Source: Acholoe squamosa
Lineage: Eukaryota > Annelida > Polychaeta > Phyllodocida > Polynoidae
Length of the DNA stretch: 64,000 nt
Direction: 5' to 3'
Assembly (NCBI GenBank): GCA_949317995.1
Contig: OX439051.1
Coordinates: 43,589,250 to 43,653,249 of the forward strand
Positions within the stretch are counted from its first letter, which is position 1. Every line of letters starts with the position of its first letter. Below the pieces are notes generated by a model. That model saw only the letters and a list, made by a program, of their open reading frames with translations, was not told where the DNA came from and made no database searches. The position numbers were made by a program, and so were the translations under genes. Shown piece by piece: positions 11,040-63,571 of this stretch.

Positions 11040-11500
11040 TTTGATAGTCTGGGTTGAGGCGTGAGACAGACTAGTCGTGTATTTCTCTTAATTCTCTAAT
11101 TGCTCATAATTACCCACTGTGATATTGATGAAAGTCTTGTTCAAGATGGTTGTCTATTGATTCTCCAGGTCGAGTCTCTCTTATGCCTTCCCAACAAGTC
11201 TGTCAATGCTGTGAGTTTTTTACTCTGACAAAACTTTGTGCTGGAGGGGACGAGCCTGTTTACTTGTAGGCTTTGGATCCTCCTTGTTGTGATGGTCTTA
11301 TCATTAATCCATACTGGGTTTACATGTAACCTGATGTATAAAGACATAGGTCCACACTTGTTGTGCCAAACTAGTGCTTCCTCATGAGCTACCCAAAAGG
11401 TAAGTGAAATACAGCTTGAGGGCAATAAATGAAGAAGCACTTAGTTTGTAGCAATAAAACTATATCTCTGTATTTATCCTATGTCACATCAGTATAACAA
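11040..11500. other. Non-coding stretch, nothing recognised
   Basis: No gene, RNA or repeat was recognised. A minus-strand frame of 99 codons (11,141-11,440) shows no family resemblance or clear splice boundaries. Confidence 0.4.
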
Positions 11501-11519
11501 CTATATCTCCCAGAAAAAA

Positions 11520-12200
11520 GGCACGAGAAGACATTTTGTAAGTGTCACTGATCAAGAAGCAAGAAGCCATTGTTATTGTTCCTTGCCGGCAGTGGTACTG
11601 CTGTGTTTATGTCACTTTTCATCTTTATTCTAAGCTTGTCATTTTATAATATTAAAATCCCAAGAAGTATTCGATCCATAGATGATGAAGGCATGCACAA
11701 TGTCTCCAATATATACACAATAAAGAAGAATCCATTGATTTTTCCATTGTAAACAAGTCGGGCACGGCCATTCTGTGAGTCTTCTTGCTTTGTCCTGTGA
11801 CCCTCATCCAGGCCACTGACACATTTCTTCGAGCAAGGAGGTGGGGGAATGGTGGACCGCGACTCGCTTATAATGGAAAAATCAATAGATTCTTCTTTAT
11901 TGTTAATATTATGGACTCATTTAGCATGGAGGGATCATCTAGGCTATCTGAGTATGTATATATTTTAATAACTTGACATGAGAACGTTGGATTCAATACG
12001 AAATATGGCTGTAAACACAGCAGTTCCGCTACCGGGTAGGTCCTACAGGCTTCTTATATATATATATTAACATTGGAGTTCATCACCATTCAGTGTGGCG
12101 CAATGGCTAACATCCTCGCCAACCAGCACTGCGGCCAGTGTTCAATACCCCAACGAGTCTGGACAGTTTTTCACATTGAAACATGGCGAGATTGACTTAA
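11520..12200. repeat. Divergent-core repeat family, copy A
   Basis: The left part read on the minus strand and the right part read on the plus strand share a head (atggaaaaatcaat.gattcttctttattg) around a GC-richer centre near 11,760-11,870, so the unit is an imperfect palindrome with divergent arms. The right arm starts a short frame at 11,911 (MDSFSMEGSSRLSE) matching the frame in copies B and C. A tRNA-like segment follows at about 12,088-12,160. The left arm contains gagaagacattttgtaagt, also found in copy B at about 41,670. No known transposase or reverse transcriptase is visible. Confidence 0.6.
12088..12160 (+). repeat. tRNA-like module of copy A
   Basis: Contains an A-box-like ggcgcaatggctaaca and a B-box-like gtgttcaatacccc with 'actgcggcc' between them. 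The arrangement matches 42,237-42,307. It is too diverged to be a functional tRNA. Confidence 0.45.
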
Positions 12201-12390
12201 TGTCTTAGCCATACATTTCCCAAAAGATCCTGAGTCCAACTTGACCTTGATAAAGTACATCCAAAAATCCCTAAAAAGCACATGTTTGTATATTAAGGGC
12301 ATATATAACAAATAGAGGTGCACTTGGTGATTCTAGGGGCAGATAAGGAGCACGAGGCCATGGGTCGCGTGCATTCTTATTTAGCCCATA

Positions 12391-23484: not shown

Positions 23485-24307
23485 TATATAAACAGAAGGC
23501 AACACCAACACTTGGGGTATTAGTGATATAAACAGAAGGCAACACCAACACTTGGGGTATTAGTGATATAAACAGAGGGCAACACCAACACTTGGGGTAT
23601 TAGTGATATAAACAGAAGGCAACACCAACACTTGGGGTATTAGTGATATAAACAGAGGGCAACACCAACACTTGGGGTATTAGTGATATAAACAGAAGGC
23701 AACACCAACACTTGGGGTATTAGTGATATAAACAGAGGGCAACACCAACACTTGGGGTATAAGTGATATAAACAGAGGGCAACACCAACACTTGGGGTAT
23801 TAGTGATATAAACAGAGGGCAACACCAACACTTGGGGTATAAGTGATATAAACAGAGGGCAACACCAACACTTGGGGTATTAGTGATATAAACAGAGGGC
23901 AACACCAACACTTGGGGTATAAGTGATATAAACAGAGGGCAACACCAACACTTGGGGTATTAGTGATATAAACAGAGGGCAACACCAACACTTGGGGTAT
24001 AAGTGATATAAACAGAGGGCAACACCAACACTTGGGGTATTAGTGATATAAACAGAGGGCAACACCAACACTTGGGGTATAAGTGATATAAACAGAGGGC
24101 AACACCAACACTTGGGGTATTAGTGATATAAACAGAAGGCAACACCAACACTTGGGGTATAAGTGATATAAACAGAGGGCAACACCAACACTTGGGGTAT
24201 TAGTAATATAAACAGAGGGAAACACCAACACTTGGGGTATTAGTGATATAAACAGAAGGCAACACCAACACTTGGGGTATTAGTGATATAAACAGAAGGC
24301 AACACCA
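23485..24307. repeat. 40-bp minisatellite, about 20.5 copies
   Basis: The unit core is caacaccaacacttggggta followed by ttagtgatataaacagaggg. Copies are nearly identical. From about 23,720 to 24,180 units ending tattag alternate regularly with units ending tataag, giving an 80-bp higher-order repeat. Frames on the minus strand (63 codons, repeated every 80 bases) are by-products. Confidence 0.97.
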
Positions 24308-25002: not shown

Positions 25003-25768
25003 ACTGAGAAGTGGTATACCACAGGGCCTCGACTGAGCAGTGGTATACCACAGGGTCTCGACTCACACTGAGAAGTGGTATACCACAGGGCCTCGACTCA
25101 CACTGAGAAGTGGTATACCACAGGGCCTCCACTCACACTGAGCAGTGGTATACCACAGGGCCTCCACTCACACTGAGCAGTGGTATACCACAGGGCCTCC
25201 ACTCACACTGAGCAGTGGTATACCACAGGGCCTCCACTCACACTGAGCAGTGGTATACCACAGGGCCTCCACTCACACTGAGAAGTGGTATACCACAGGG
25301 CCTCCACTCACACTGAGAAGTGGTATACCACAGGGCCTCCACTCACACTGAGAAGTGGTATACCACAGGGCCTCCACTCACACTGAGCAGTGGTATACCA
25401 CAGGGCCTCCACTCACACTGAGAAGTGGTATACCACAGGGCCTCCACTCACACTGAGAAGTGGTATACCACAGGGCCTCCACTGAGCAGTGGTATAACAC
25501 AGGGTCTCCACTCACACTGAGAAGTGGTATAACACAGGGCCTCCACTCACACTGAGAAGTGGTATACCACAGGGCCTCCACTCACACTGAGCAGTGGTAT
25601 ACCACAGGGCCTCCACTCACACTGAGAAGTGGTATACCACAGGGCCTCCACTCACACTGAGCAGTGGTATAACACAGGGCCTCCACTCACACTGAGAAGT
25701 GGTATAACACAGGGCCTTCACTCACACTGAGAAGTGGTATACCACAGGGCCTCCACTCACACTGAGCA
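25003..25768. repeat. 35-bp minisatellite, first block (about 22 copies)
   Basis: The unit reads cactgagcagtggtatacca then cagggcctccactca. It contains the 12-bp palindrome GTGGTATACCAC. A/C variants (gagaag versus gagcag) and shorter units lacking 'ctcaca' are interspersed. Minus-strand frames (67-78 codons) come from the array and are not genes. Confidence 0.97.
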
Positions 25769-26097
25769 CGGGCTTCCCTAGCCCACTTAAAAGGGTCTAC
25801 TTCTGATCTTTCCTATCCCCTCAGGATGTTTGTGGTGCACATATGTGCGGGCACTGTCACATTCCTCTGTGAAATTTTGTAATGTAGTTCTCGCCATGAA
25901 TATGACCTTAGCTGTCGAAATGGCGTTAAACATCTATTACTCACTCACTCCCTCCTCTTTCCTATCCCCTCAGAATGTGTGTGGTGCACATATGCGCGGG
26001 CACTGACACATTCCTCTGTTAAATTATCAACCTGTGAAGCACGGGATAGCCACTTAGTGCCGCTGAAGTGCTGTAAAACACAAATCAATCAATCAAT
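25769..26097 (+). mobile_element. SINE-like insertion splitting the 35-bp minisatellite
   Basis: The insert starts cgggcttccctagcccactt and ends in an (AATC)n tail (caaatcaatcaatcaat). CACACTGAGCA occurs directly before it (25,758-25,768) and directly after it (26,098-26,108), as expected of a target duplication, although the array itself also contains this phrase. The insert is itself a partial dimer: the tcccctcag.atgtgtgtgg part occurs twice, with the first unit ending in cggcgttaaac-like sequence (tggcgttaaac). Confidence 0.68.
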
Positions 26098-26999
26098 CAC
26101 ACTGAGCAGTGGTATACCACAGGGCCTCCACTCACACTGAGCGGTGTTACACCACAGGGTCTCCACTCACACTGAGCAGTGGTATACGACAGGGCCTCGA
26201 CTGAGCAGTGGTATACCACAGGGCCTCCACTCACACTGAGCGGTGTTACACCACAGGGCCTCCACTCACACTGAGAAGTAGTATACCACAGGGCCTCGAC
26301 TGAGCAGTGATATAACACAGGGCCTCCACTCACACTGAGCAGTGGTATACCACAGGGCCTCGACTGAGCAGTGGTATACCACAGGGTCTCGACTCACACT
26401 GAGAAGTGGTATACCACAGGGCCTCGACTCACACTGAGAAGTGGTATACCACAGGGCCTCCACTCACACTGAGCAGTGGTATACCACAGGGCCTCCACTC
26501 ACACTGAGCAGTGGTATACCACAGGGCCTCCACTCACACTGAGCAGTGGTATACCACAGGGCCTCCACTCACACTGAGCAGTGGTATACCACAGGGCCTC
26601 CACTCACACTGAGCAGTGGTATACCACAGGGCCTCCACTCACACTGAGCGGTGTTATACCACAGGGTCTCCACTCACACTGAGCAGTGGTATACCACAGG
26701 GCCTCCACTCACACTGAGCAGTGATATACCACAGGGTCTCCACTCACACTGAGAAGTGGTATACCACAGGGCCTCCACTCACACTGAGCAGTGGTATACC
26801 ACAGGGCCTCCACTCACACTGAGCAGTGGTATAACACGGCCTCCACTCACACTGAGAAGTGGTATAACACGGCCTCCACTCACACTGAGCAGTGGTATAA
26901 CACAGGGCCTCCACTCACACTGAGAAGTGGTATTACACAGGGTCTCCACTCACACTGAGAAGTGGTATAACACAGGGCCTTCACTCACACTGAGCAGTG
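26098..26999. repeat. 35-bp minisatellite, second block (about 26 copies)
   Basis: The same unit as the first block, resuming in phase after the insertion. It contains more variants (gcggtgttacacc, single-base losses) than the first block. Confidence 0.95.
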
Positions 27000-35675: not shown

Positions 35676-36584
35676 CTGGCTAAGCTACCCTCTACAGCCT
35701 TCACCGCTAAGCTACCCTCTACAGCCTTCATGGCTAAGCTACCCTCTACAGCCTTTATGGCTAAGCTACCCTCTACAGCCTTCATGGCTAAGTTACCCTT
35801 TAAAGCCTTCATGGCTAACCTACCCTCTAAAGCCTTCATGGCTAAGCTACCCTCTATAGCCTTCATGGCTAAGCTACCCTCTACAGCCTTCACGGCTAAG
35901 TTACCCTCTACAGCCTACACGGCTAAGCTACCCTCTACAGCCTTCACGGCTAAGTTACCCTTTACAGCCTTCATTGCTAAGCTACCCTCTACAGCCTTCA
36001 CGGCTAAGTTACCCTCTACAGCCTTCATGGCTAAGCTACCCTCTACAGCCTTCACGGCTAAGTTACCCTTTACAGCCTTCATGGCTAAGCTACCCTCTAC
36101 AGCCTTCACGGCTAAATTACCCTTTACAGCCTTCATGGCTAAGCTACCCTCTTCAGCCTTCATGGCTAAGCTACACTCTACAGCCTTCATGGCTAAGCTA
36201 CCCTCTACAGCCTTCATGGCTAAGTGACCCTCTACAGCCTTCATGGCTAAGCTACCCTCTACAGCCTTCACGGCTAAGCTACCCTCTACAGCCTTCATGG
36301 CTAAGCTACCCTCTACAGCCTTCACGGCTAAGTTACCCTCTACAGCTTTCATGGCTAAGTTACCCTCTACAGCCTTCACGGCTAAGCTACCCTCTACAGC
36401 CTTCATGCCTAAGCTACCCTCTACAGCCTTCATGGCTAAGCTACCCTCTACAGCCTTCATGGCTAAGCTACCCTCTACAGCCTTCACGGTTAAGTTACCC
36501 TTTACAGCCTTCATGGCTAAGCTACCCTCTACAGCCTTCACAGCTACGCTACCCTCTACAGCCTTCATGGCTAAGCTACCCTCT
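35676..36584. repeat. 27-bp minisatellite, about 34 copies
   Basis: The unit is atggctaagctaccctctac then agccttc. Because 27 is a multiple of 3 and the unit has no stop in several frames, long frames of 9-residue repeats appear on both strands (MAKLPSTAF on plus, MKAVEGSLA on minus; up to 244 codons). Units alternate between catggct and cacggct, so part of the variation is C/T at a CpG. I find no flanking exon signals and regard it as non-coding. Confidence 0.95.
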
Positions 36585-36599
36585 AATAATCCACCCGAC

Positions 36600-37928: not shown

Positions 37929-38588
37929 CCCCTGAGAGTGTCCAACATTTCAATGGCTTATATCATGTAGTCAGTGAGAGTGTCCAACCCTCAGTGGCGT
38001 TTATCATGTAGTCAGTGAGGGTGTCCAACTCTCAGTGGCGTTTATCATGTAGTCAGTGAGGGTGTCCAACCCTCAGTGGCGTTTATCATGTAGTCAGTGA
38101 GAGTGTCCAACCCTCAGTGGCGTTTATCATGTAGTCAGTGAGAGTGTCCAACCCTCAGTGGCGTTTATCATGTAGTCAGTGAGAGTGTCCAACTCTCAGT
38201 GGCGTTTATCATGTAGTCAGTGAGGGTGTCCAACCCTCAGTGGCGTTTATCATGTAGTCAGTGAGAGTGTCCAACCCTCAGTGGCGTTTATCATGTAGTC
38301 AGTGAGAGTGTCCAACTCTCAGTGGCGTTTATCATGTAGTCAGTGAGGGTGTCCAACTCTCAGTGGCGTTTATCATGTAGTCAGTGAGGGTGTCCAACCC
38401 TCAGTGGCGTTTATCATGTAGTCAGTGAGAGTGTCCAACCCTCAGTGGCGTTTATCATGTAGTCAGTGAGAGTGTCCAACTCTCAGTGGCGTTTATCATG
38501 TAGTCAGTGAGGGTGTCCAACCCTCAGTGGCGTTTATCATGAATTCAGTGAGAGTGTCCAACCCTCAGTGGCGTTTATCATGTAGTCA
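37929..38588. repeat. 41-bp minisatellite, about 16 copies
   Basis: The unit contains gtgtccaaccctcagtggcg and tttatcatgtagtcagtgag. Two variable positions (gagagtg/gagggtg and aaccctc/aactctc) recur in patterned blocks, indicating that groups of two to four units were duplicated together. Confidence 0.96.
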
Positions 38589-39033: not shown

Positions 39034-39104
39034 TGCACCTTGCACCAGGGGTACAGGGGTTTTGAAATTGATAAGTGTCTCGATGCTTTTAAAAACAGGC
39101 CACT

Positions 39105-41478
39105 GTGGTATACCCCTGTATATAACCCTGTGTATACCCCTGTGTAAAACCCTGTGTATAACCTGTGTAAAACCCTGTGTATAACCCTGTGTACACCCCT
39201 GTGTATAACCCTGTGTAAAACCCTGTGTAAAACCCTGTGTATAACCCTGTGTATACCCCTGTGTATAACCCTGTGTAAAACCCTGTGTAAAACCCTGTGT
39301 ATAACCCTGTGTATACCCCTGTGTATAACCCTGTGTATACCCCTGTGTATAACCCTGTGTATACCCCTGTGTAAAACCCTGTGTATAACCCTGTGTATAC
39401 CCCTGTGTATAACCCTGTGTATACCCCTGTGTATAACCCTGTGTATACCCCTGTGTATAACCCTGTGTATAACCCTGTGCATACCCCTGTGTATAACCCT
39501 GTGTATACCCCTGTGTATAACCCTGTGTATACCCCTGTGTATAACCCTGTGTATAACCCTGTGTATAACCCTGTGTATACCCCTGTGTATAACCCTGTGT
39601 ATACCCCTGTGTATAACCCTGTGTATACCCCTGTGTATAACCCTGTGTAAAACCCTGTGTATAACCCTGTGTATACCCCTGTGTATAACCCTGTGTATAC
39701 CCCTGTGTATAACCCTGTGTAAAATCCTGTGTAAAATCCTGTGTAAAACCCTGTGTATACCCCTGTGTATAACCCTGTGTAAAATCCTGTGTATACCCCT
39801 GTGTATAACCCTGTGTATAACCCTGTGTAAAACCCTGTGTATAACCCTGTGTATACCCCTGTGTATAACCCTGTGTAAAACCCTGTGTATAACCCTGTGT
39901 AAAACCCTGTGTATAACCCTGTGTAAAATCCTGTGTATACCCCTGTGTATAACCCTGTGTATAACCCTGTGTAAAATCCTGTGTATAACCCTGTGTATAA
40001 CCCTGTGTATAACCCTGTGGAAAACCCTGTGTATAACCCTGTGTATACCCCTGTGTATAACCCTGTGTATACCCCTGTGTATAACCCTGTGTATACCCCT
40101 GTGTATACCCCTGTGTATAACCCTGTGTAAAATCCTGTGTAAAATCCTGTGTAAAACCCTGTGTATACCCCTGTGTATAACCCTGTGTAAAATCCTGTGT
40201 ATACCCCTGTGTATAACCCTGTGTATAACCCTGTGTATACCCCTGTGTATAACCCTGTGTAAAATCCTGTGTAAAACCCTGTGCAAATCCCTGTGTATAC
40301 CCCTGTGTATAACCCTGTGTAAAATCCTGTGTATACCCCTCTGTATAACCCTGTGTATAACCCTGTGTATAACCCTGTGTACACCCCTGTGTATAACCCT
40401 GTGTATACCCCTGTGTATAACCCTGTGTATACCCCTGTGTATAACCCTGTGTATACCCCTGTGTATAACCCTGTGTATACCCCTGTGTATAACCCTGTGT
40501 AAAATTCTGTGTAAAACCCTGTGTATAACCTGTGTAAAACCCTGTGTAAAACCCTGTGTAAAACCCTGTGTATACCCTGTGTAAAACCGTGTGTAAAACC
40601 CTGTGTAAAACCGTGTGTAAAACCCTGTGTATACCCTGTGTATAACCGTGTGTAAAACCCTGTGTATAACCCTGTGTAAAACCCTGTGTATAACCCTGTG
40701 TATAACCTTGTGTATAACTCTGTGTATAACCCTGTGTATAACCCTGTGTATAACCTTGTGGTATAAACCTGTGGTATAACCCAGTGTATAACCCTGTGTA
40801 TAACTATGTGTATAACCCTGTGGTATAACCCTGTGGTATAACCCAGTGTATAACCCTGTGTATAACCCTGTGTATAACCCTGTGTATAACCCTGTGTATA
40901 CCCCTGTGTATAACCCTGTGTATACCCCTGTGTATAACCCTGTGTATACCCCTGTGTATAACCCTGTGTATACCCCTGTGTATAACCCTGTGTAAAATTC
41001 TGTGTAAAACCCTGTGTATAACCTGTGTAAAACCCTGTGTAAAACCCTGTGTAAAACCCTGTGTATACCCTGTGTAAAACCGTGTGTAAAACCCTGTGTA
41101 AAACCGTGTGTAAAACCCTGTGTATACCCTGTGTATAACCGTGTGTAAAACCCTGTGTATAACCCTGTGTAAAACCCTGTGTATAACCCTGTGTATAACC
41201 TTGTGTATAACTCTGTGTATAACCCTGTGTATAACCCTGTGTATAACCTTGTGGTATAAACCTGTGGTATAACCCAGTGTATAACCCTGTGTATAACTAT
41301 GTGTATAACCCTGTGGTATAACCCTGTGGTATAACCCAGTGTATAACCCTGTGTATAACCCTGTGTATAACCCTGAGTATAACCCTGTGGTATAACCCTG
41401 TGTAAAACCCTGTGTAAAACCCTGTGTAAAACCCTGTGTATAATCCTGTGTATAACCCTATGTATAACCCTGTGTATA
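39105..41478. repeat. 12-bp minisatellite, block 1 (about 2.37 kb)
   Basis: The unit is CCCTGTGTATAA, with variants CCCTGTGTATAC and (C/T)CCTGTGTAAAA in mixed order. The 12-base period keeps frames open on both strands for more than 400 codons (4-residue repeats such as YTGL/YTGV), but there is no gene structure. Past 40,500 irregular units of 11 or 13 bases (gtggtataa, cccagtg) appear, and a 493-base stretch is repeated. Confidence 0.98.
40400..41385. repeat. 493-bp higher-order duplication inside the 12-bp array
   Basis: Distinctive variants occur twice with the same shift: aaaattctg at 40,501 and 40,994, and gtataaacctgtggtataac at 40,761 and 41,254. The two copies are almost identical, so this block was duplicated recently as a unit. 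The outer limits are approximate. Confidence 0.85.
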
Positions 41479-41479
41479 A

Positions 41480-41612
41480 TAAGCGTTTAATGTATGTTAT
41501 GGGTACGCACGAGTGGGTTTATGGGTTAATAATCCACAACCCCAAAGGGGGAGTGGATTATTAACCCATAAACCCACGAGTGCGTACCCATAACATGCAT
41601 TAAAGCGTTTAT
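41480..41612. repeat. Long near-perfect hairpin at the left end of copy B
   Basis: Arms of about 57 bases (left: aagcgtttaatgtatgttat...aataatccac; right inverse: aaacgctttaatgcatgtta...) enclose a short GC-rich loop (aaccccaaaggggga). The arms differ at only a few positions, including gag versus tcg. It abuts the minisatellite on the left. Confidence 0.85.
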
Positions 41613-41648
41613 CGAACATATTTCTCCATTTTGTATCAATTTCTTACC

Positions 41649-41933
41649 TTATAATCCAAGATTTAATCCAGGAGAAGACATTTTGTAAGTACATGCGATC
41701 TGCTCGCTTTGGCAACCCGCCGTGGCCATGTTGTCACTCGTCGACATAGCTCCACATTTACACTCATTTTTCGGGTATAATCCAAGCATGTCAAGTCCCA
41801 TACTTCTAGCAGCGCCAAATATATGATCTCTAGTTGGTGATTGCTTACATTTTGTATCCATTTTCTTCGAAATAAATAAGAATCCATTGATTTTCCATAA
41901 CGATCCAACGCACACGGCCCGGTACACGGCCAT
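41649..41933 (-). CDS. Open frame in the left arm of copy B (94 codons), unknown
   Basis: Starts MAVYRAVCVGSLWKINGFLF and is open to a stop within 'cttggattataag'. A consensus donor AAG|GTAAGA follows at about 41,649. It shares WKINGFLFISK with the opposite arm, so both frames start inside the palindromic core. Beyond that the two differ. The protein is cysteine-containing (CKQS, CKCGAM, CQSEQIAC) without a family I recognise. It may be part of a repeat-encoded spliced transcript or a chance frame. Confidence 0.3.
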   Translation of the reverse strand: MAVYRAVCVGSLWKINGFLFISKKMDTKCKQSPTRDHIFGAARSMGLDMLGLYPKNECKCGAMSTSDNMATAGCQSEQIACTYKMSSPGLNLGL

Positions 41934-42074
41934 TGCTTCTTGATGACAGAGCGGGGAGGTGCCCGGATGTAAGAACTAGGTCAGCCACGAGTCGAGCAAG
42001 GAATGGCCGGACGGGGCGGGTCCCGACTCGTATCGATGTGGAAAATCAATGGATTCTTATTTATTTCGAAGGAA

Positions 42075-42185
42075 ATGGAGGAATTTGGCATGGCATGTTC
42101 ATCTAGGATATCTAAGGATGGTTCTCTGTTAATAACTCCACCAGGCTCCATTGAAATCTATGCTAACGAGGTCTGCAAACATCAG
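42075..42185 (+). CDS. Repeat-encoded mini-exon, copy B
   Basis: Thirty-seven codons from MEEFGMACSSRISKDGSLL to YANEVCKHQ, followed immediately by GTATGTGG, a good splice donor. The frame is open upstream to 42,003. Copy C (58,879-58,990) encodes an alignable peptide with 24 of 37 residues identical, also followed by GTATGT. Changes fall at all codon positions and the exon length differs by one base, so selection on the protein is not demonstrated. Confidence 0.4.
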
Positions 42186-42236
42186 GTATGTGGGAAAAGA
42201 TTTTGAAAAACTGGATGTAGATTCAGTTCTATCACC

Positions 42237-42307
42237 GGTCGGCTTGGTATAGTGGACAGCGAGCTCCTCTCCTGCCACAGCGGCCGGGGATCGATTCCCC
42301 GTTGACC
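42237..42307 (+). repeat. tRNA-like module of copy B
   Basis: The seven-base ends GGTCGGC and GTTGACC can pair, an A-box-like tggtatagtggacagc is followed by a B-box ggggatcgattcccc, and total length is 71 bases. The anticodon arm is not canonical. It resembles the polymerase III promoter of a tRNA-derived repeat rather than a working tRNA. The same layout is seen at 59,042-59,106 and 12,088-12,160. Confidence 0.6.
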
Positions 42308-42490
42308 CTAAACGGTTTTAACAGGAAACGTATGGAGGAGTTGACATTGTATACTTCTCCAATTTATTAACATGTCCAGATTGAAACCAGCAGCTTCTTG
42401 AAGACGAAGAAAAGGTCTCAGAGTGTGTTATGGCTGGATAAGGAACTGGGGTTATGAGCAAAAAAGCACTGTTGAGGCTCAGATAGTTAG

Positions 42491-43663
42491 ATAACCCTGT
42501 GTAAAATCCTGTGTAAAACCCTGTGTATAATCCTGTGTAAAATCCTGTGTATAACCCTGTGTATAACCCTGTGTATAACCCTGTGTAAAACCCTGTGGTA
42601 AAACCCTGTGTAAAACCCTGTGTATAACCCTGTGTAAAACCCTGTGTATAACCCTGTGTATAACCCTGTGTATAACCCTGTGTAAAACCCTGTGTAAAAC
42701 CCTGTGTAAAACCCTGTGTATAACCCTGTGTATAACCCTGTGTATAACCCTGTGTAAAACCCTGTGGTAAAACCCTGTGTAAAACCCTGTGTATAACCCT
42801 GTGTAAAACCCTGTGTAAAACCCTGTGTAAAACCCTGTGTATAACCCTGTGTATAACCCTGTGTAAAACCCTGTGTAAAACCCTGTGTATAACCCTGTGT
42901 ATAACCCTGTGTAAAACCCTGTGTAAAACCCTGTGTATAACCCTGAGTATAACCCTGAGTATACCCCTGTGTATAACCCTGAGTATAACCCTGAGTATAA
43001 CCCTGAGTATAACCCTGAGTATAACCCTGTGTATAACCCTGAGTATAACCCTGTGTAAAACCCTGAGTATAACCCTGAGTATAACCCTGAGTATAACCCT
43101 GTGTATAACCCTGAGTATAACCCTGTGCATAAACCTGAGTATAACCCTGAGTATACCCCTGTGTATAACCCTGAGTATAACCCTGTGTATAACCCTGAGC
43201 ATAACCCTGTGTATAACCCTGAGTATAACCCTAAGTATAACCCTGAGTATAACCCTGTGTATAACCCTGAGTATAACCCTGAGTATAACCCTGAGTATAA
43301 CCCTATGTAAAACCCTGTGTATAACCCTGAGTATAACCCTGAGTATAACCCTGAGTATAACCCTGAGTATAACCCTGAGTATAACCCTGTGTAAAACCCT
43401 GTGTATAACCCTGAGTATAACCCTGAGTATAACCCTGAGTATAACCCTGTGTAAAACCCTGTGTATAACCCTGAGTATAACCCTGTGGTATAACCCTGAG
43501 TATAACCCTGAGTATAACCCTGTGTATAACCCTGAGTATAACCCTGAGTATAACCCTGCGTATAACCCTGTGTAAAACCCTGTGTATAACCCTGAGTATA
43601 ACCCTGAGTATAACCCTGAGTATAACCCTGTGTATAACCCTCTGTAAAGCCCTGTGTATAACC
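42491..43663. repeat. 12-bp minisatellite, block 2 (about 1.17 kb)
   Basis: The same array resumes after copy B. To about 42,935 it is CCCTGTGTAAAA/TATAA. After that the variant CCCTGAGTATAA dominates and the TATAC variant nearly disappears, so the two blocks have evolved different unit mixtures. Confidence 0.97.
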
Positions 43664-43884
43664 CTTTAGGGACCACTGGTGCATTAATGTATCATGCCCA
43701 TTGGTTGTCATGATGCACCAATGAAGTGCTAGCGCGACTGCTCGCCACTACTTCATTGGAGCATCATGCCAAACCTCTGGGATCCCCGGGATGCGGGAAT
43801 GCAAGTAAATTGCCAGGGCTGCATTCATGGATCATGACGACCAATGGCGATGATGCATTAATGTATCAGCAGCCCTTAAAGGGA
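43661..43884. mobile_element. Foldback element (TCATGATGCA family), near-complete
   Basis: Starts accctttagggaccactggt and ends cagcagcccttaaaggga. The left half contains catgcccattggttgtcatg and tgcaccaatgaagtgct, mirrored by cacttcattggagcatcatg and atgacgaccaatggcgatga. Confidence 0.72.
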
Positions 43885-48366: not shown

Positions 48367-48620
48367 ACCCTTTCAGGGCCACTAATGCATCATGCCCATT
48401 GGCCATCATGATGCACGAATGCAGCCCTGGCGAGTAACTCACCAGGACTGCATTTATGCATCAAGCTGACCCTACAGGGCTGATACACCCCTGCAGGGTT
48501 AGCCTGATGCTCCAATGAAGTGCTGGCGAGCAGTCTCGCCAGCACTTCATTGGTGCATCATGCCGACCAATGAGCACGATGTACTCCTGCATAAACGCCC
48601 CTTAGAAGTTAGCGGGTTAA
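48367..48620. mobile_element. Foldback element (TCATGATGCA family), near-complete
   Basis: Starts accctttcagggccactaat. The centre carries the long arm caatgaagtgctggcgagca/tctcgccagcacttcattgg with only a few bases between. Right-hand catgccgaccaatgagcacg mirrors the left catgcccattggccatcatg. Confidence 0.75.
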
Positions 48621-51687: not shown

Positions 51688-51921
51688 GACCCTTTAAGGG
51701 CCGCTTATGCAGGAGTGCATCATGCCCATTGGCTGTCATGATGCACAAATGCAGTAACTCACCATGCATCATGCATCATGCAAACCCTACAGGATTGATA
51801 TACAGGGTCAGCATGATGCTCCAATGAAGTGCTGGCAATCAGTCATGTCAGCACTTCATTGGTGCATCATGACGACCAATGGGCATGATGCAGTAATGCA
51901 TTAGCGACTCTTAAGTGTTAA
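51688..51921. mobile_element. Foldback element (TCATGATGCA family), near-complete
   Basis: gaccctttaagggccgctta at the left; right end gcattagcgactcttaagtg followed by TTAA (51,918-51,921). Arms caatgaagtgctggcaatca/gtcagcacttcattgg. Confidence 0.72.
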
Positions 51922-58464: not shown

Positions 58465-58602
58465 ACCATTTCTATTTACTTACATCTAAACAAGCCATAG
58501 CCACACTCAATCCTTCATTTCTATCCACTACTTACAACTAAACAAGCCATAGCCACACTCAACCCTTCATTTCTATCCACTACTTACATCTAAACAAGCC
58601 AA
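58465..58602. repeat. 52-bp tandem repeat, about 2.7 copies
   Basis: The unit has cttacatctaaacaagccat, agccacactcaatccttcat and ttctatccacta. Phrases of the same unit (ttacagctaaacaagccgta) reappear at 59,256 after copy C, so copy C may have been inserted into this repeat. Confidence 0.85.
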
Positions 58603-58639
58603 GCCATTAACCTTTTAACCTATAAATTCTTTACTACAT

Positions 58640-59255
58640 GGTGCCGAGGATTATTCTCGCCATGTTTCATTGCCATTCTGGTCTATATAGAGGCCAAATA
58701 CCAACAAATTATTTATAAATCAAAGCGAAAAGCCAAGCTGGGGCGTGTTGACACTGTAAAAGTAGACCGGATGTCAGGGCGTGACACACTTACGGGTCAA
58801 AGGTCAGCAAGCCGCAATGAAGGGTGCCGAGACGTATCGATATGAAAAATCATTGGATTTTTATTTATTGCAAACAATATGGAGAATTTAGGCATGGCAT
58901 GTTCATATTGGATATCTAAGGATGTTTCCCTGTTAAAAACTCGACTTGGCACCATTAGATTCTATGCTAATGAGGTGTGCAAAGCCCCAGGTATGTCAGA
59001 CAACTTTTTCAAATCCTTCATGTACATTGGCTTCTAGTACCGTTCGGCTTGGTGTAGTGGATAGCGAGTCTGTCTATTGCCACAGCGGCAGGGGAACGAG
59101 GGTGACTTTATCCTTCTCCAATTTATTAACATGTCCAGTTTGAAACCAGCACCTTCTTGAAGATGAAGAAAAGGTCTCAGAGTGTGGTTATGGCTGGATA
59201 ATGCACCGTGTATTATAAGAAAAAAGCATTGTCCAAGCCAAAATCGTTAGATAAT
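58640..59255. mobile_element. Divergent-core repeat family, copy C
   Basis: Matches copy B from the centre rightwards: cgtatcgatatgaaaaatca, the mini-exon, GTATGT donor, a degraded tRNA-like module (59,042-59,106), ccttctccaatttattaaca, gaagatgaagaaaaggtctc and the terminal gttagataa. The left arm is reduced. ccatgtttcattgcc at 58,659 is the inverse of a phrase in copy A (about 12,175). Confidence 0.65.
58879..58990 (+). CDS. Repeat-encoded mini-exon, copy C
   Basis: MENLGMACSYWISKDVSLLK through RFYANEVCKAP, then GTATGTCA. Twenty-four of 37 residues match copy B. One extra base before the donor changes the splice phase relative to copy B, which argues against a strictly conserved multi-copy gene, or indicates decay of one copy. 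Confidence 0.35.
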
Positions 59256-59741
59256 TACAGCTAAACAAGCCGTAACCACACTGTAAGTAGTATATAGAAG
59301 GCCTCTGATTCATGTATAAGAAACGCCTTATATGCAGGACATTACGGTTTATGCCATGTCAAGGGCCACATGACAGCAACTGGTGATGTTGCACCCTACA
59401 CTAGGCGCCCTCAGTCAGCTGAAATTTGAGGTGATGAGGGATGATTGCCAAAGCTCCCGATATAAAGAGCTAGCTACAGCCACGTTCAATATATCATTCC
59501 TATACAGTATTCACAGCTGGGCAGGTTAGGGACTCTCAGACCCAACACACTACTAACAGCAATTGCACTGAGGGCTGGTGACGGAAGCAGCATTGAGAAG
59601 AATGGGGATGGGGTTATGGGGGTTGATGAACTCCGAAAAAATCTTCCCCTGATTATTCTTTCTAATTTTTCTTTGGTGTAATTTCTTTTATTGCAGTAAA
59701 CTTATATACATAAATATTCATCTGTTTCATATTGTACATAT

Positions 59742-60522: not shown

Positions 60523-60755
60523 TTAACCCTTTAAGGGCTGCCTGTGCATTAACGCGCCATGCCCATTGGTCGTCATCTTGCGGTTACTTGACAAGGCTGC
60601 ATTCAATCATCATGCCGACCCTACAGGGTTGATACAGTCTTGGAGGGTTCTCATGATGCACCAATGAAGTGCTTGTGAGTAGATTCGCCAGCACTTCATT
60701 GGTGCATCATGATGACAAATGGGCACGATGCACTCCTGCATCTACCGTCCACTGT
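60523..60755. mobile_element. Foldback element (TCATGATGCA family) in the intron
   Basis: TTAA at 60,523-60,526, then ccctttaagggctgcctgtg. Arms catgcccattggtcgtcat / atgatgacaaatgggcacga and caatgaagtgcttgtgag / cgccagcacttcattgg. It lies immediately downstream of the 60,501 donor. Confidence 0.72.
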
Positions 60756-62333: not shown

Positions 62334-62572
62334 CGGGCTTCCCTCACCCACTTAAAAGGGTCTTTTTCTCTTCTTTCCTATCCCGGGCTTCCCTAGCCCA
62401 CTTAAAAGGGTCTAATTCTCATCTTTTTTATCCCCTCAGGATGTGTGTGGTGCACATATGCGTGGGCACTGACACATTCCTTTGTAAAGTTGTGTAATGT
62501 AGTTCTCGCCATGAATATGACCTTAGCTGTCGAAATGGCGTAAAACATCTATTACTCACTCAAGTCACATCA
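62334..62572 (+). repeat. SINE-like repeat, copy 3
   Basis: Homologous to the insert at 25,769-26,097: cgggcttccctagcccactt, tatcccctcaggatgtgtgt, gcgtgggcactgacacattc, atgaatatgaccttagctgt and gaaatggcgtaaaac with a tactcactca tail. The first 50 bases are duplicated (cgggcttccctcacccactt precedes). Confidence 0.72.
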
Positions 62573-63348: not shown

Positions 63349-63571
63349 GGGCAGTAATTCCCCGTACTTGGAGGAGATACCGAGTGGTCCCACCTTGCGA
63401 GGGGGATCTCTAGAGAGCTCGGTACCAGGTAATCACTGCCCCCTAGTGTGTGTATCATACCGATCCAGGTGTAGTTGGAAGGTAGAGAATGTCAGGCCAG
63501 GGGAAGTAGCTCAGTGGTAGAGCATCCGCTTCGAAGTTGGAGGGTCCCGGGTTCGAGTCCCGGTTTCTCCA
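63349..63571 (+). repeat. tRNA-derived dispersed repeat, well-preserved copy
   Basis: The lead gcagtaattccccgtacttg and the phrase tatcataccgatccaggtgt match 7430-7552. The lead ends in a full tRNA-like segment at 63,500-63,571. It is the second copy of the family in the window. Confidence 0.7.

What the first reader, a model, noticed from the sequence alone, without database searches (positions are those of the whole stretch)
41480..42490. Divergent-core repeat family: palindromic promoter-like centre, open frames ending in splice donors, tRNA-like module and terminal hairpin
Three copies (11.52-12.20, 41.48-42.49 and 58.64-59.26 kb) share an unusual architecture. Two arms diverge from a GC-richer imperfect palindrome, and in copies A and B both arms start with the same ggaaaatcaatggattctta-type head. 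The plus arm carries a short frame; in B and C 24 of 37 residues match, and both are followed directly by GTATGT. A tRNA-like A-box/B-box module comes next, and the unit ends gttagataa. Copy B adds a 57-bp-arm hairpin. This is not the layout of a known SINE, MITE or LINE that I can name. It could be a bidirectional, spliced, RNA-mediated or foldback element, or copies of a small gene pair. Caution: the B/C differences fall at all codon positions and the donor phase differs by one base.
Basis: partly seen in the sequence, partly recalled or inferred. Interest (0 to 1): 0.75.

Follow-up and report, generated by a model that had tools for sequence, protein, structure and literature searches.

The report
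Non-coding SINE-like repeat with palindrome
Three scattered copies of a non-coding, probably once-mobile DNA repeat combine an inverted front part, a tRNA-like piece and one strongly preserved stretch; it looks like an unusual relative of the common 'SINE' type of jumping element rather than a new gene pair.

Summary
The three copies are real and homologous: A about 11.50-12.26 kb, B 41.61-42.49 kb, C 58.60-59.25 kb. A and B share both arms; C shares only the plus side and has no palindrome. The gene-pair reading fails: between B and C the frame evolves neutrally (dN/dS 0.98), 24 shared residues are what random substitution gives, A's frame has a stop, and the frames read through GTATGT. The 'terminal hairpin' is a separate insertion with its own 9-bp duplication.

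What is preserved is non-coding: a tRNA-like A-box intact in all three copies, an 87-bp block 84/87 identical in B and C against about 78% elsewhere, and the 3' end GTTAGATAA of B and C. B and C each interrupt a tandem array; C has a 17-bp target duplication (16/17). Best reading: a non-autonomous retroposon that works like a tRNA SINE with a conserved central domain. Its tRNA module is internal, so I do not file it as a SINE.

The oddest fact: the inverted heads change together within each copy (8 columns split by copy, 0 by arm), the outer arms do not (5 against 12). No genome is held and no relative was found, so family-wide tests remain undone.

The parts
41480..42494 (+). Copy B as inserted in the 12-bp (CCCTGTGTATAA) array, including a later nested hairpin; the last 4 bases (ATAA) could equally be array
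   Evidence: Same 12-bp array on both sides, 39103-41479 and 42491-43665; ends read
41488..41602 (.). Separate hairpin insertion, arms 51/56 complementary, flanked by 9-bp direct repeats AAGCGTTTA (41481-41489 and 41603-41611; 7-9 bp depending on where the ends are drawn)
   Evidence: no equivalent in A or C
41613..41856 (-). Left (minus) arm of B, outer part; 41669-41690 is 21/22 identical to A 11522-11543
41857..41904 (-). Left inverted head of B
   Evidence: 42/50 identical to the right head
41905..42036 (.). GC-richer imperfectly palindromic centre of B
42037..42085 (+). Right head of B
42075..42206 (+).
42236..42312 (+). tRNA-like module: A-box 42245-42255, B-box 42288-42298
   Evidence: Rfam tRNA model not matched
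42355..42441 (+). Conserved non-coding block, 84/87 identical to C
42442..42494 (+). 3' tail ending GTTAGATAA (36/50 identical to C up to 42492)
58601..59254 (+). Copy C, inserted in a 52-bp array; target duplication TTACATCTAAACAAGCC 58584-58600 and TTACAGCTAAACAAGCC 59255-59271 (16/17)
59050..59060 (+). A-box of copy C, 0 mismatches; B-box lost in a deletion
11500..12260 (+). Copy A (profile envelope 11498-12301): long inverted repeat (173/231 aligned bases identical between arms) plus a tRNA-like module (A-box 12096-12106, 0 mismatches; B-box-like 12139-12149, 3 mismatches)

Best explanation
A, B and C are damaged copies of a non-coding, non-autonomous interspersed element that most likely moved by RNA: a transcript was copied into DNA by another element's reverse transcriptase, starting from the fixed 3' end (GTTAGATAA) and leaving a target duplication (17 bp in C, perhaps 12 in B). 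It works like a tRNA-derived SINE with a conserved central domain: tRNA-like promoter boxes, then an 87-bp block held nearly constant between source lineages, then a short 3' tail. Unlike a SINE it carries 5' material in front of the tRNA module, which in A and B is an inverted pair of arms around a GC-richer centre. Shown: homology, neutral plus frame, intact A-box, block conservation between B and C, shared 3' end of B and C, their position inside arrays. Inferred: retroposition, the helper element, the promoter in use, and selection on the block.
For: Three homologous copies; A and B share left end, plus arm and tRNA module. Neutral frame: dN/dS 0.98, with 53% of 1760 stop-free null runs at or below it; 24/35 residues identical against a null mean of 23.4. 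Block 84/87 identical against 22.5% divergence elsewhere; best 80-column window permutation P 0.0009. B's box pair is the best in 64 kb after the one annotated tRNA (0+1 mismatches, spacing 32 in both); 15 shuffled windows, one strand each, gave none with 1 mismatch or fewer; the A-box has 0 mismatches in A, B and C. C interrupts a 52-bp array: right flank matches the unit at 46 against a maximum of 29 in 2000 shuffles, and a 16/17-bp direct repeat abuts its two ends. B interrupts a 12-bp array.
Against: Pol III initiates just upstream of an A-box (recalled), so a tRNA promoter would not transcribe the 5' part that the copies share. Only three copies are known. B's target duplication cannot be told from array periodicity. 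A has only an 8-bp flanking repeat (TATAACAA, 11493-11500 and 12304-12311), of which about 0.6 are expected by chance for stretches of that size (my arithmetic). The Rfam tRNA model does not match B or A. A shows neither the block nor the GTTAGATAA end; two occurrences of that 9-mer came up in 9 of 100 shuffled windows. No helper LINE was seen: no Pfam family reached its cut-off among 20 of 270 ORFs of 55 aa or more plus four typed peptides; the other 250 were not scanned.
Confidence: 0.58

Rival explanations
1. A non-autonomous DNA transposon (foldback, MITE or Helitron-like) that picked up a tRNA SINE; the inverted arms are its own structure and it moves as DNA.
For: Long inverted arms in A and B; the part upstream of the tRNA promoter moves with the rest; minisatellite surroundings.
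Against: The inverted arms are central, not terminal; C has no palindrome; B and C share only the right end; C's 17-bp duplication is longer than usual for cut-and-paste elements (recalled).
Confidence: 0.22
2. Degenerating copies of a host locus: a divergent gene or pseudogene pair with a SINE in an intron, spread by local duplication.
For: B can be read as two exons in one frame joined by GT...AG; the A-box lies at the same place in all three copies and the block in B and C; all three copies have one orientation.
Against: dN/dS 0.98; A's frame has an internal stop and the block's three substitutions are all replacement changes in the would-be exon 2 frame; no Pfam family at cut-off for the four typed peptides and no PDB match for the joined one; B and C sit inside two different tandem arrays, which duplication of a locus does not explain.
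Confidence: 0.13
3. A hairpin-RNA or bidirectional-promoter module: the paired heads are kept complementary because the stem or the paired promoter elements work.
For: Heads (43 columns): 8 split by copy, 0 by arm, 0 crossed; outer arms (117 columns): 5, 12 and 3. Fold z -15.7 and -10.7.
Against: No clear wobble bias expected of a selected RNA stem: G-U against A-C transitions 12:8 in A and 3:2 in B. C lacks the second head. Gene conversion between close inverted arms gives the same pattern.
Confidence: 0.07

Closest known systems
tRNA-derived SINEs with a conserved central domain, e.g. HaSE1 and HaSE2 of Helicoverpa armigera (PMC3272025; abstract and sections 14 and 18 read)
   Same: tRNA-related part followed by a central domain better conserved than the rest (62 bp, 96.8% between HaSE1 and HaSE2; 84/87 here between B and C); the paper reports one HaSE1 copy in a microsatellite
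   Different: In HaSE the tRNA part is in the 5' region and the central domain follows immediately; in B 623 bp of non-tRNA sequence, partly inverted, precede the module (41613-42235) and about 43 bp separate it from the block. The letters of the CORE, V, Deu and Ceph domains were not available to compare.
Foldback/MITE elements (recalled)
   Same: Long inverted arms able to form a hairpin in A and B
   Different: Arms are internal and unequal; C has none; ends are not inverted repeats. The nested hairpin at 41488-41602 does fit this kind.
LINE-derived non-autonomous retroposons such as trypanosomatid SIDERs (recalled; PMC2424063 seen in the listing only)
   Same: Non-coding, several hundred bp, presumed dependence on another element's reverse transcriptase
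   Different: No tRNA-like module or inverted 5' part recalled for SIDERs

Membership tests
tRNA-derived SINE | Internal pol III A- and B-boxes of tRNA type | tested here: met
   Met in B: 0+1 mismatches; A: 0+3; C: A-box 0 mismatches, B-box deleted. Rfam tRNA model not matched in B or A
tRNA-derived SINE | tRNA-related region at the 5' end of the element | tested here: not met
   All three copies share sequence upstream of the module
tRNA-derived SINE | Flanking target-site duplications | tested here: inconclusive
   C 16/17 bp; B confounded by its 12-bp array; A only 8 bp, chance level
tRNA-derived SINE | 3' tail shared with a partner LINE | not testable with these tools
   No genome held
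tRNA-derived SINE | High copy number, dispersed | not testable with these tools
   3 copies in 64 kb; no genome held
MITE / foldback DNA element | Terminal inverted repeats | tested here: not met
   Inverted arms are central in A and B and absent in C
LINE or LTR element | Reverse-transcriptase reading frame | tested here: not met
   Longest stop-free frame in the copies is 108 aa, too short for a reverse transcriptase; no Pfam family at cut-off for 4 of their ORFs and 4 typed peptides
Protein-coding gene pair | Purifying selection on the frames | tested here: not met
   dN/dS 0.98 for the B/C plus frame; A frame has a stop. The minus frame was tested only by Pfam

The most novel reading that the evidence does not exclude
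A mobile non-coding unit in which a paired, inverted ~43-bp promoter-like or cruciform module is actively kept matched between its arms (by conversion or selection) and is carried in front of a tRNA/central-domain retroposon, so that each insertion would plant a divergent promoter or hairpin-RNA source.
Probability: 0.1. Interest if true: 0.6.

Novelty: new variant of a known kind. Interest (0 to 1): 0.33.

Why it matters
If the family is confirmed, it would be a SINE-like element whose transcript must start upstream of its tRNA promoter, which asks how such units are transcribed and copied. Its conserved non-coding block would add a case to the SINE central domains. The within-copy matching of the inverted heads would be a countable test of arm-to-arm conversion at very short range.

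Tried and rejected
Coding reading: B/C substitutions are neutral and amino-acid identity is as expected by chance; Pfam (four typed peptides, best DUF7481, E 0.13, below its cut-off) and PDB (the joined peptide only) gave nothing. B's long minus ORF (108 aa) is not remarkable: 16 ORFs of 105 aa or more in 43,700 nt of the window (1-23400 and 43701-64000; B itself lies outside) against a mean of 9.65 in 20 shuffles.

RNA-stem selection: no clear wobble bias. The 87-bp block does not fold better than its shuffles (z -0.1). Rfam: in the whole window only the tRNA at 63500 reaches a gathering score; matches below threshold in B and A are chance level.

Relatives: exact patterns from the block, a head and an abundant local repeat found 0 matches in viral contigs, and the block and the local repeat 0 in genome contigs. 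These are viral and prokaryotic collections, so this says little about a window that looks eukaryotic. The organism was not identified. Literature; judged by the titles and abstract openings shown (10 of 35 papers, 12 of 62, all in the others), none matched the layout; PMC3272025 was the only paper opened.

Full report
1. What was checked. The window looks eukaryotic (inference): tandem arrays make up much of 23-44 kb, and no Pfam family reached its cut-off among the 20 ORFs scanned of 270 of 55 aa or more outside arrays. No genome is held for it, so everything rests on 64 kb.

2. The copies are real. BLASTN of B against the window gives C over 480 columns at 73% (E 6e-84) and A at E 3e-11. 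A profile of the three finds, at E below 0.01, only these three on the plus strand; its minus-strand hits lie inside the same copies and reflect the inverted arms. Against dinucleotide shuffles, A and B match in the left end (54 vs maximum 45 of 400), plus-arm body (89 vs 74) and tRNA module (47 vs 40). Other parts are weaker: the left-arm body of B matches A's left arm (66; 1 of 400 as good) hardly better than A's right arm (60; 1 of 400), A's tail matches B at 8 of 400 and C at 49 of 400, and the centres match at 2 of 200. So A and B share both arms, the left end most clearly. C shares the plus side and the right half of the centre; its left part 58607-58780 matches neither B nor A (36 and 158 of 200 shuffles as good).

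3. The frames are not genes. In the 35 codons that B and C share, differences fall 5, 6 and 6 on codon positions 1, 2 and 3; dN/dS is 0.98. Random placement of the same 17 changes gives a mean of 23.4 identical residues; 24 are seen. In that null a stop arose in 3236 of 5000 runs, so C's frame staying open is a 35% event. The frame runs through GTATGT in both copies, by 6 codons in B and 15 in C. A has a stop in it. In the block, the three substitutions are all replacements in the would-be exon 2 frame. Pfam gave nothing at cut-off for four typed peptides and PDB nothing for the joined one.

4. What is preserved is not coding. Along the B/C alignment, 42355-42441 is 84/87 identical while the rest diverges by 22.5% (binomial 7e-7 for that chosen stretch; 0.0009 after permuting columns and taking the best 80-column window). 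The block has no special fold. One reading is that B and C are young copies of older, diverged source lineages in which this block was constrained, as proposed for SINE central domains (PMC3272025, section 18). Local gene conversion between B and C is not excluded, and A does not show the block.

5. tRNA-like module. With A-box TRGYNNARNGG and B-box GGTTCGANTCC (consensus recalled), B's pair has 0 and 1 mismatches at the same 32-base spacing as the window's one annotated tRNA, and is the second best pair in the window; 15 shuffled windows (one strand each) had none with 1 mismatch or fewer. A has 0 and 3 mismatches; C keeps the A-box and has lost the B-box. The Rfam tRNA model does not match B or A, so the module is tRNA-derived at best, not a tRNA.

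6. Ends. GTTAGATAA occurs twice in the window, at the ends of B and C (9 of 100 shuffles had two or more). C stops a 52-bp array after TTACATCTAAACAAGCC (58584-58600), and after its GTTAGATAA the array resumes with TTACAGCTAAACAAGCC and 11 further bases, 9 of which match the unit. That is what insertion with a 17-bp target duplication leaves. B lies in a 12-bp array that is the same on both sides; a 12-bp duplication would fit but cannot be told from the repeat period. A has one 8-bp flanking repeat, TATAACAA at 11493-11500 and 12304-12311, close to its profile envelope 11498-12301; about 0.6 such repeats are expected by chance (my arithmetic), so it proves nothing.

7. The hairpin is another insertion. 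41488-41602 has arms 51/56 complementary and is flanked by AAGCGTTTA twice; in the window parts tested (1-23000 and from 43701 on) no 9-mer repeats at that spacing. It is absent from A and C.

8. The palindrome. A folds into one long hairpin (z -15.7), B's centre too (z -10.7), C does not (z -1.7). Wobble counts give no clear sign of a selected RNA stem (12:8 and 3:2). In the heads (43 gap-free columns of alignment columns 1-48) 8 columns set A apart from B in both arms alike and none sets left arms apart from right arms; in the outer arms (117 columns) the counts are 5 and 12, with 3 crossed. The heads therefore change together within a copy while the outer arms keep separate histories. Arm-to-arm conversion is the simplest cause; a working paired element is the bolder one. 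The test rests on two copies, and where the heads end was chosen after seeing the alignment.

9. Judgement. Best supported: a non-coding, non-autonomous retroposon-like family that works like a tRNA SINE with a central domain but fails the 5'-tRNA-head criterion, so it is not filed as one. The main rival is a DNA element carrying a SINE. Interest is moderate: the layout is unusual, but with three damaged copies and no genome the decisive tests are undone.

Noticed in passing
43711-43766, 48505-48560, 51814-51869, 60654-60709: A short palindromic repeat (TGATGCACCAATGAAGTGCTGGCGA facing its own inverse, 6 bases apart each time) recurs; 12 matches of the 25-mer with up to 3 mismatches against a mean of 0.00 in 100 shuffles. 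Probably a hairpin MITE family.
   Followed up: partly
25769-25947 and 62384-62562: A 179-bp repeat at 92.7% identity; the first copy begins where the 35-bp array is interrupted (array pieces end at 25768 and resume at 26094), so it may mark another insertion into an array.
   Followed up: no
63500-63571: The one annotated tRNA is called Ser with anticodon CGA but is only 72 bases long, without the long variable arm expected of tRNA-Ser (recalled); it overlaps an open minus frame of 181 aa that runs off the window.
   Followed up: partly
41488-41602: Near-perfect foldback insertion (arms 51/56) with a 7-9 bp target duplication, nested at the left edge of copy B.
   Followed up: yes
23486-24307, 25003-26999, 35677-36585, 37933-38588, 39103-43665: Dense minisatellite arrays with units of 40, 35, 27, 41 and 12 bp; several give long open frames, probably meaningless.
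   Followed up: no
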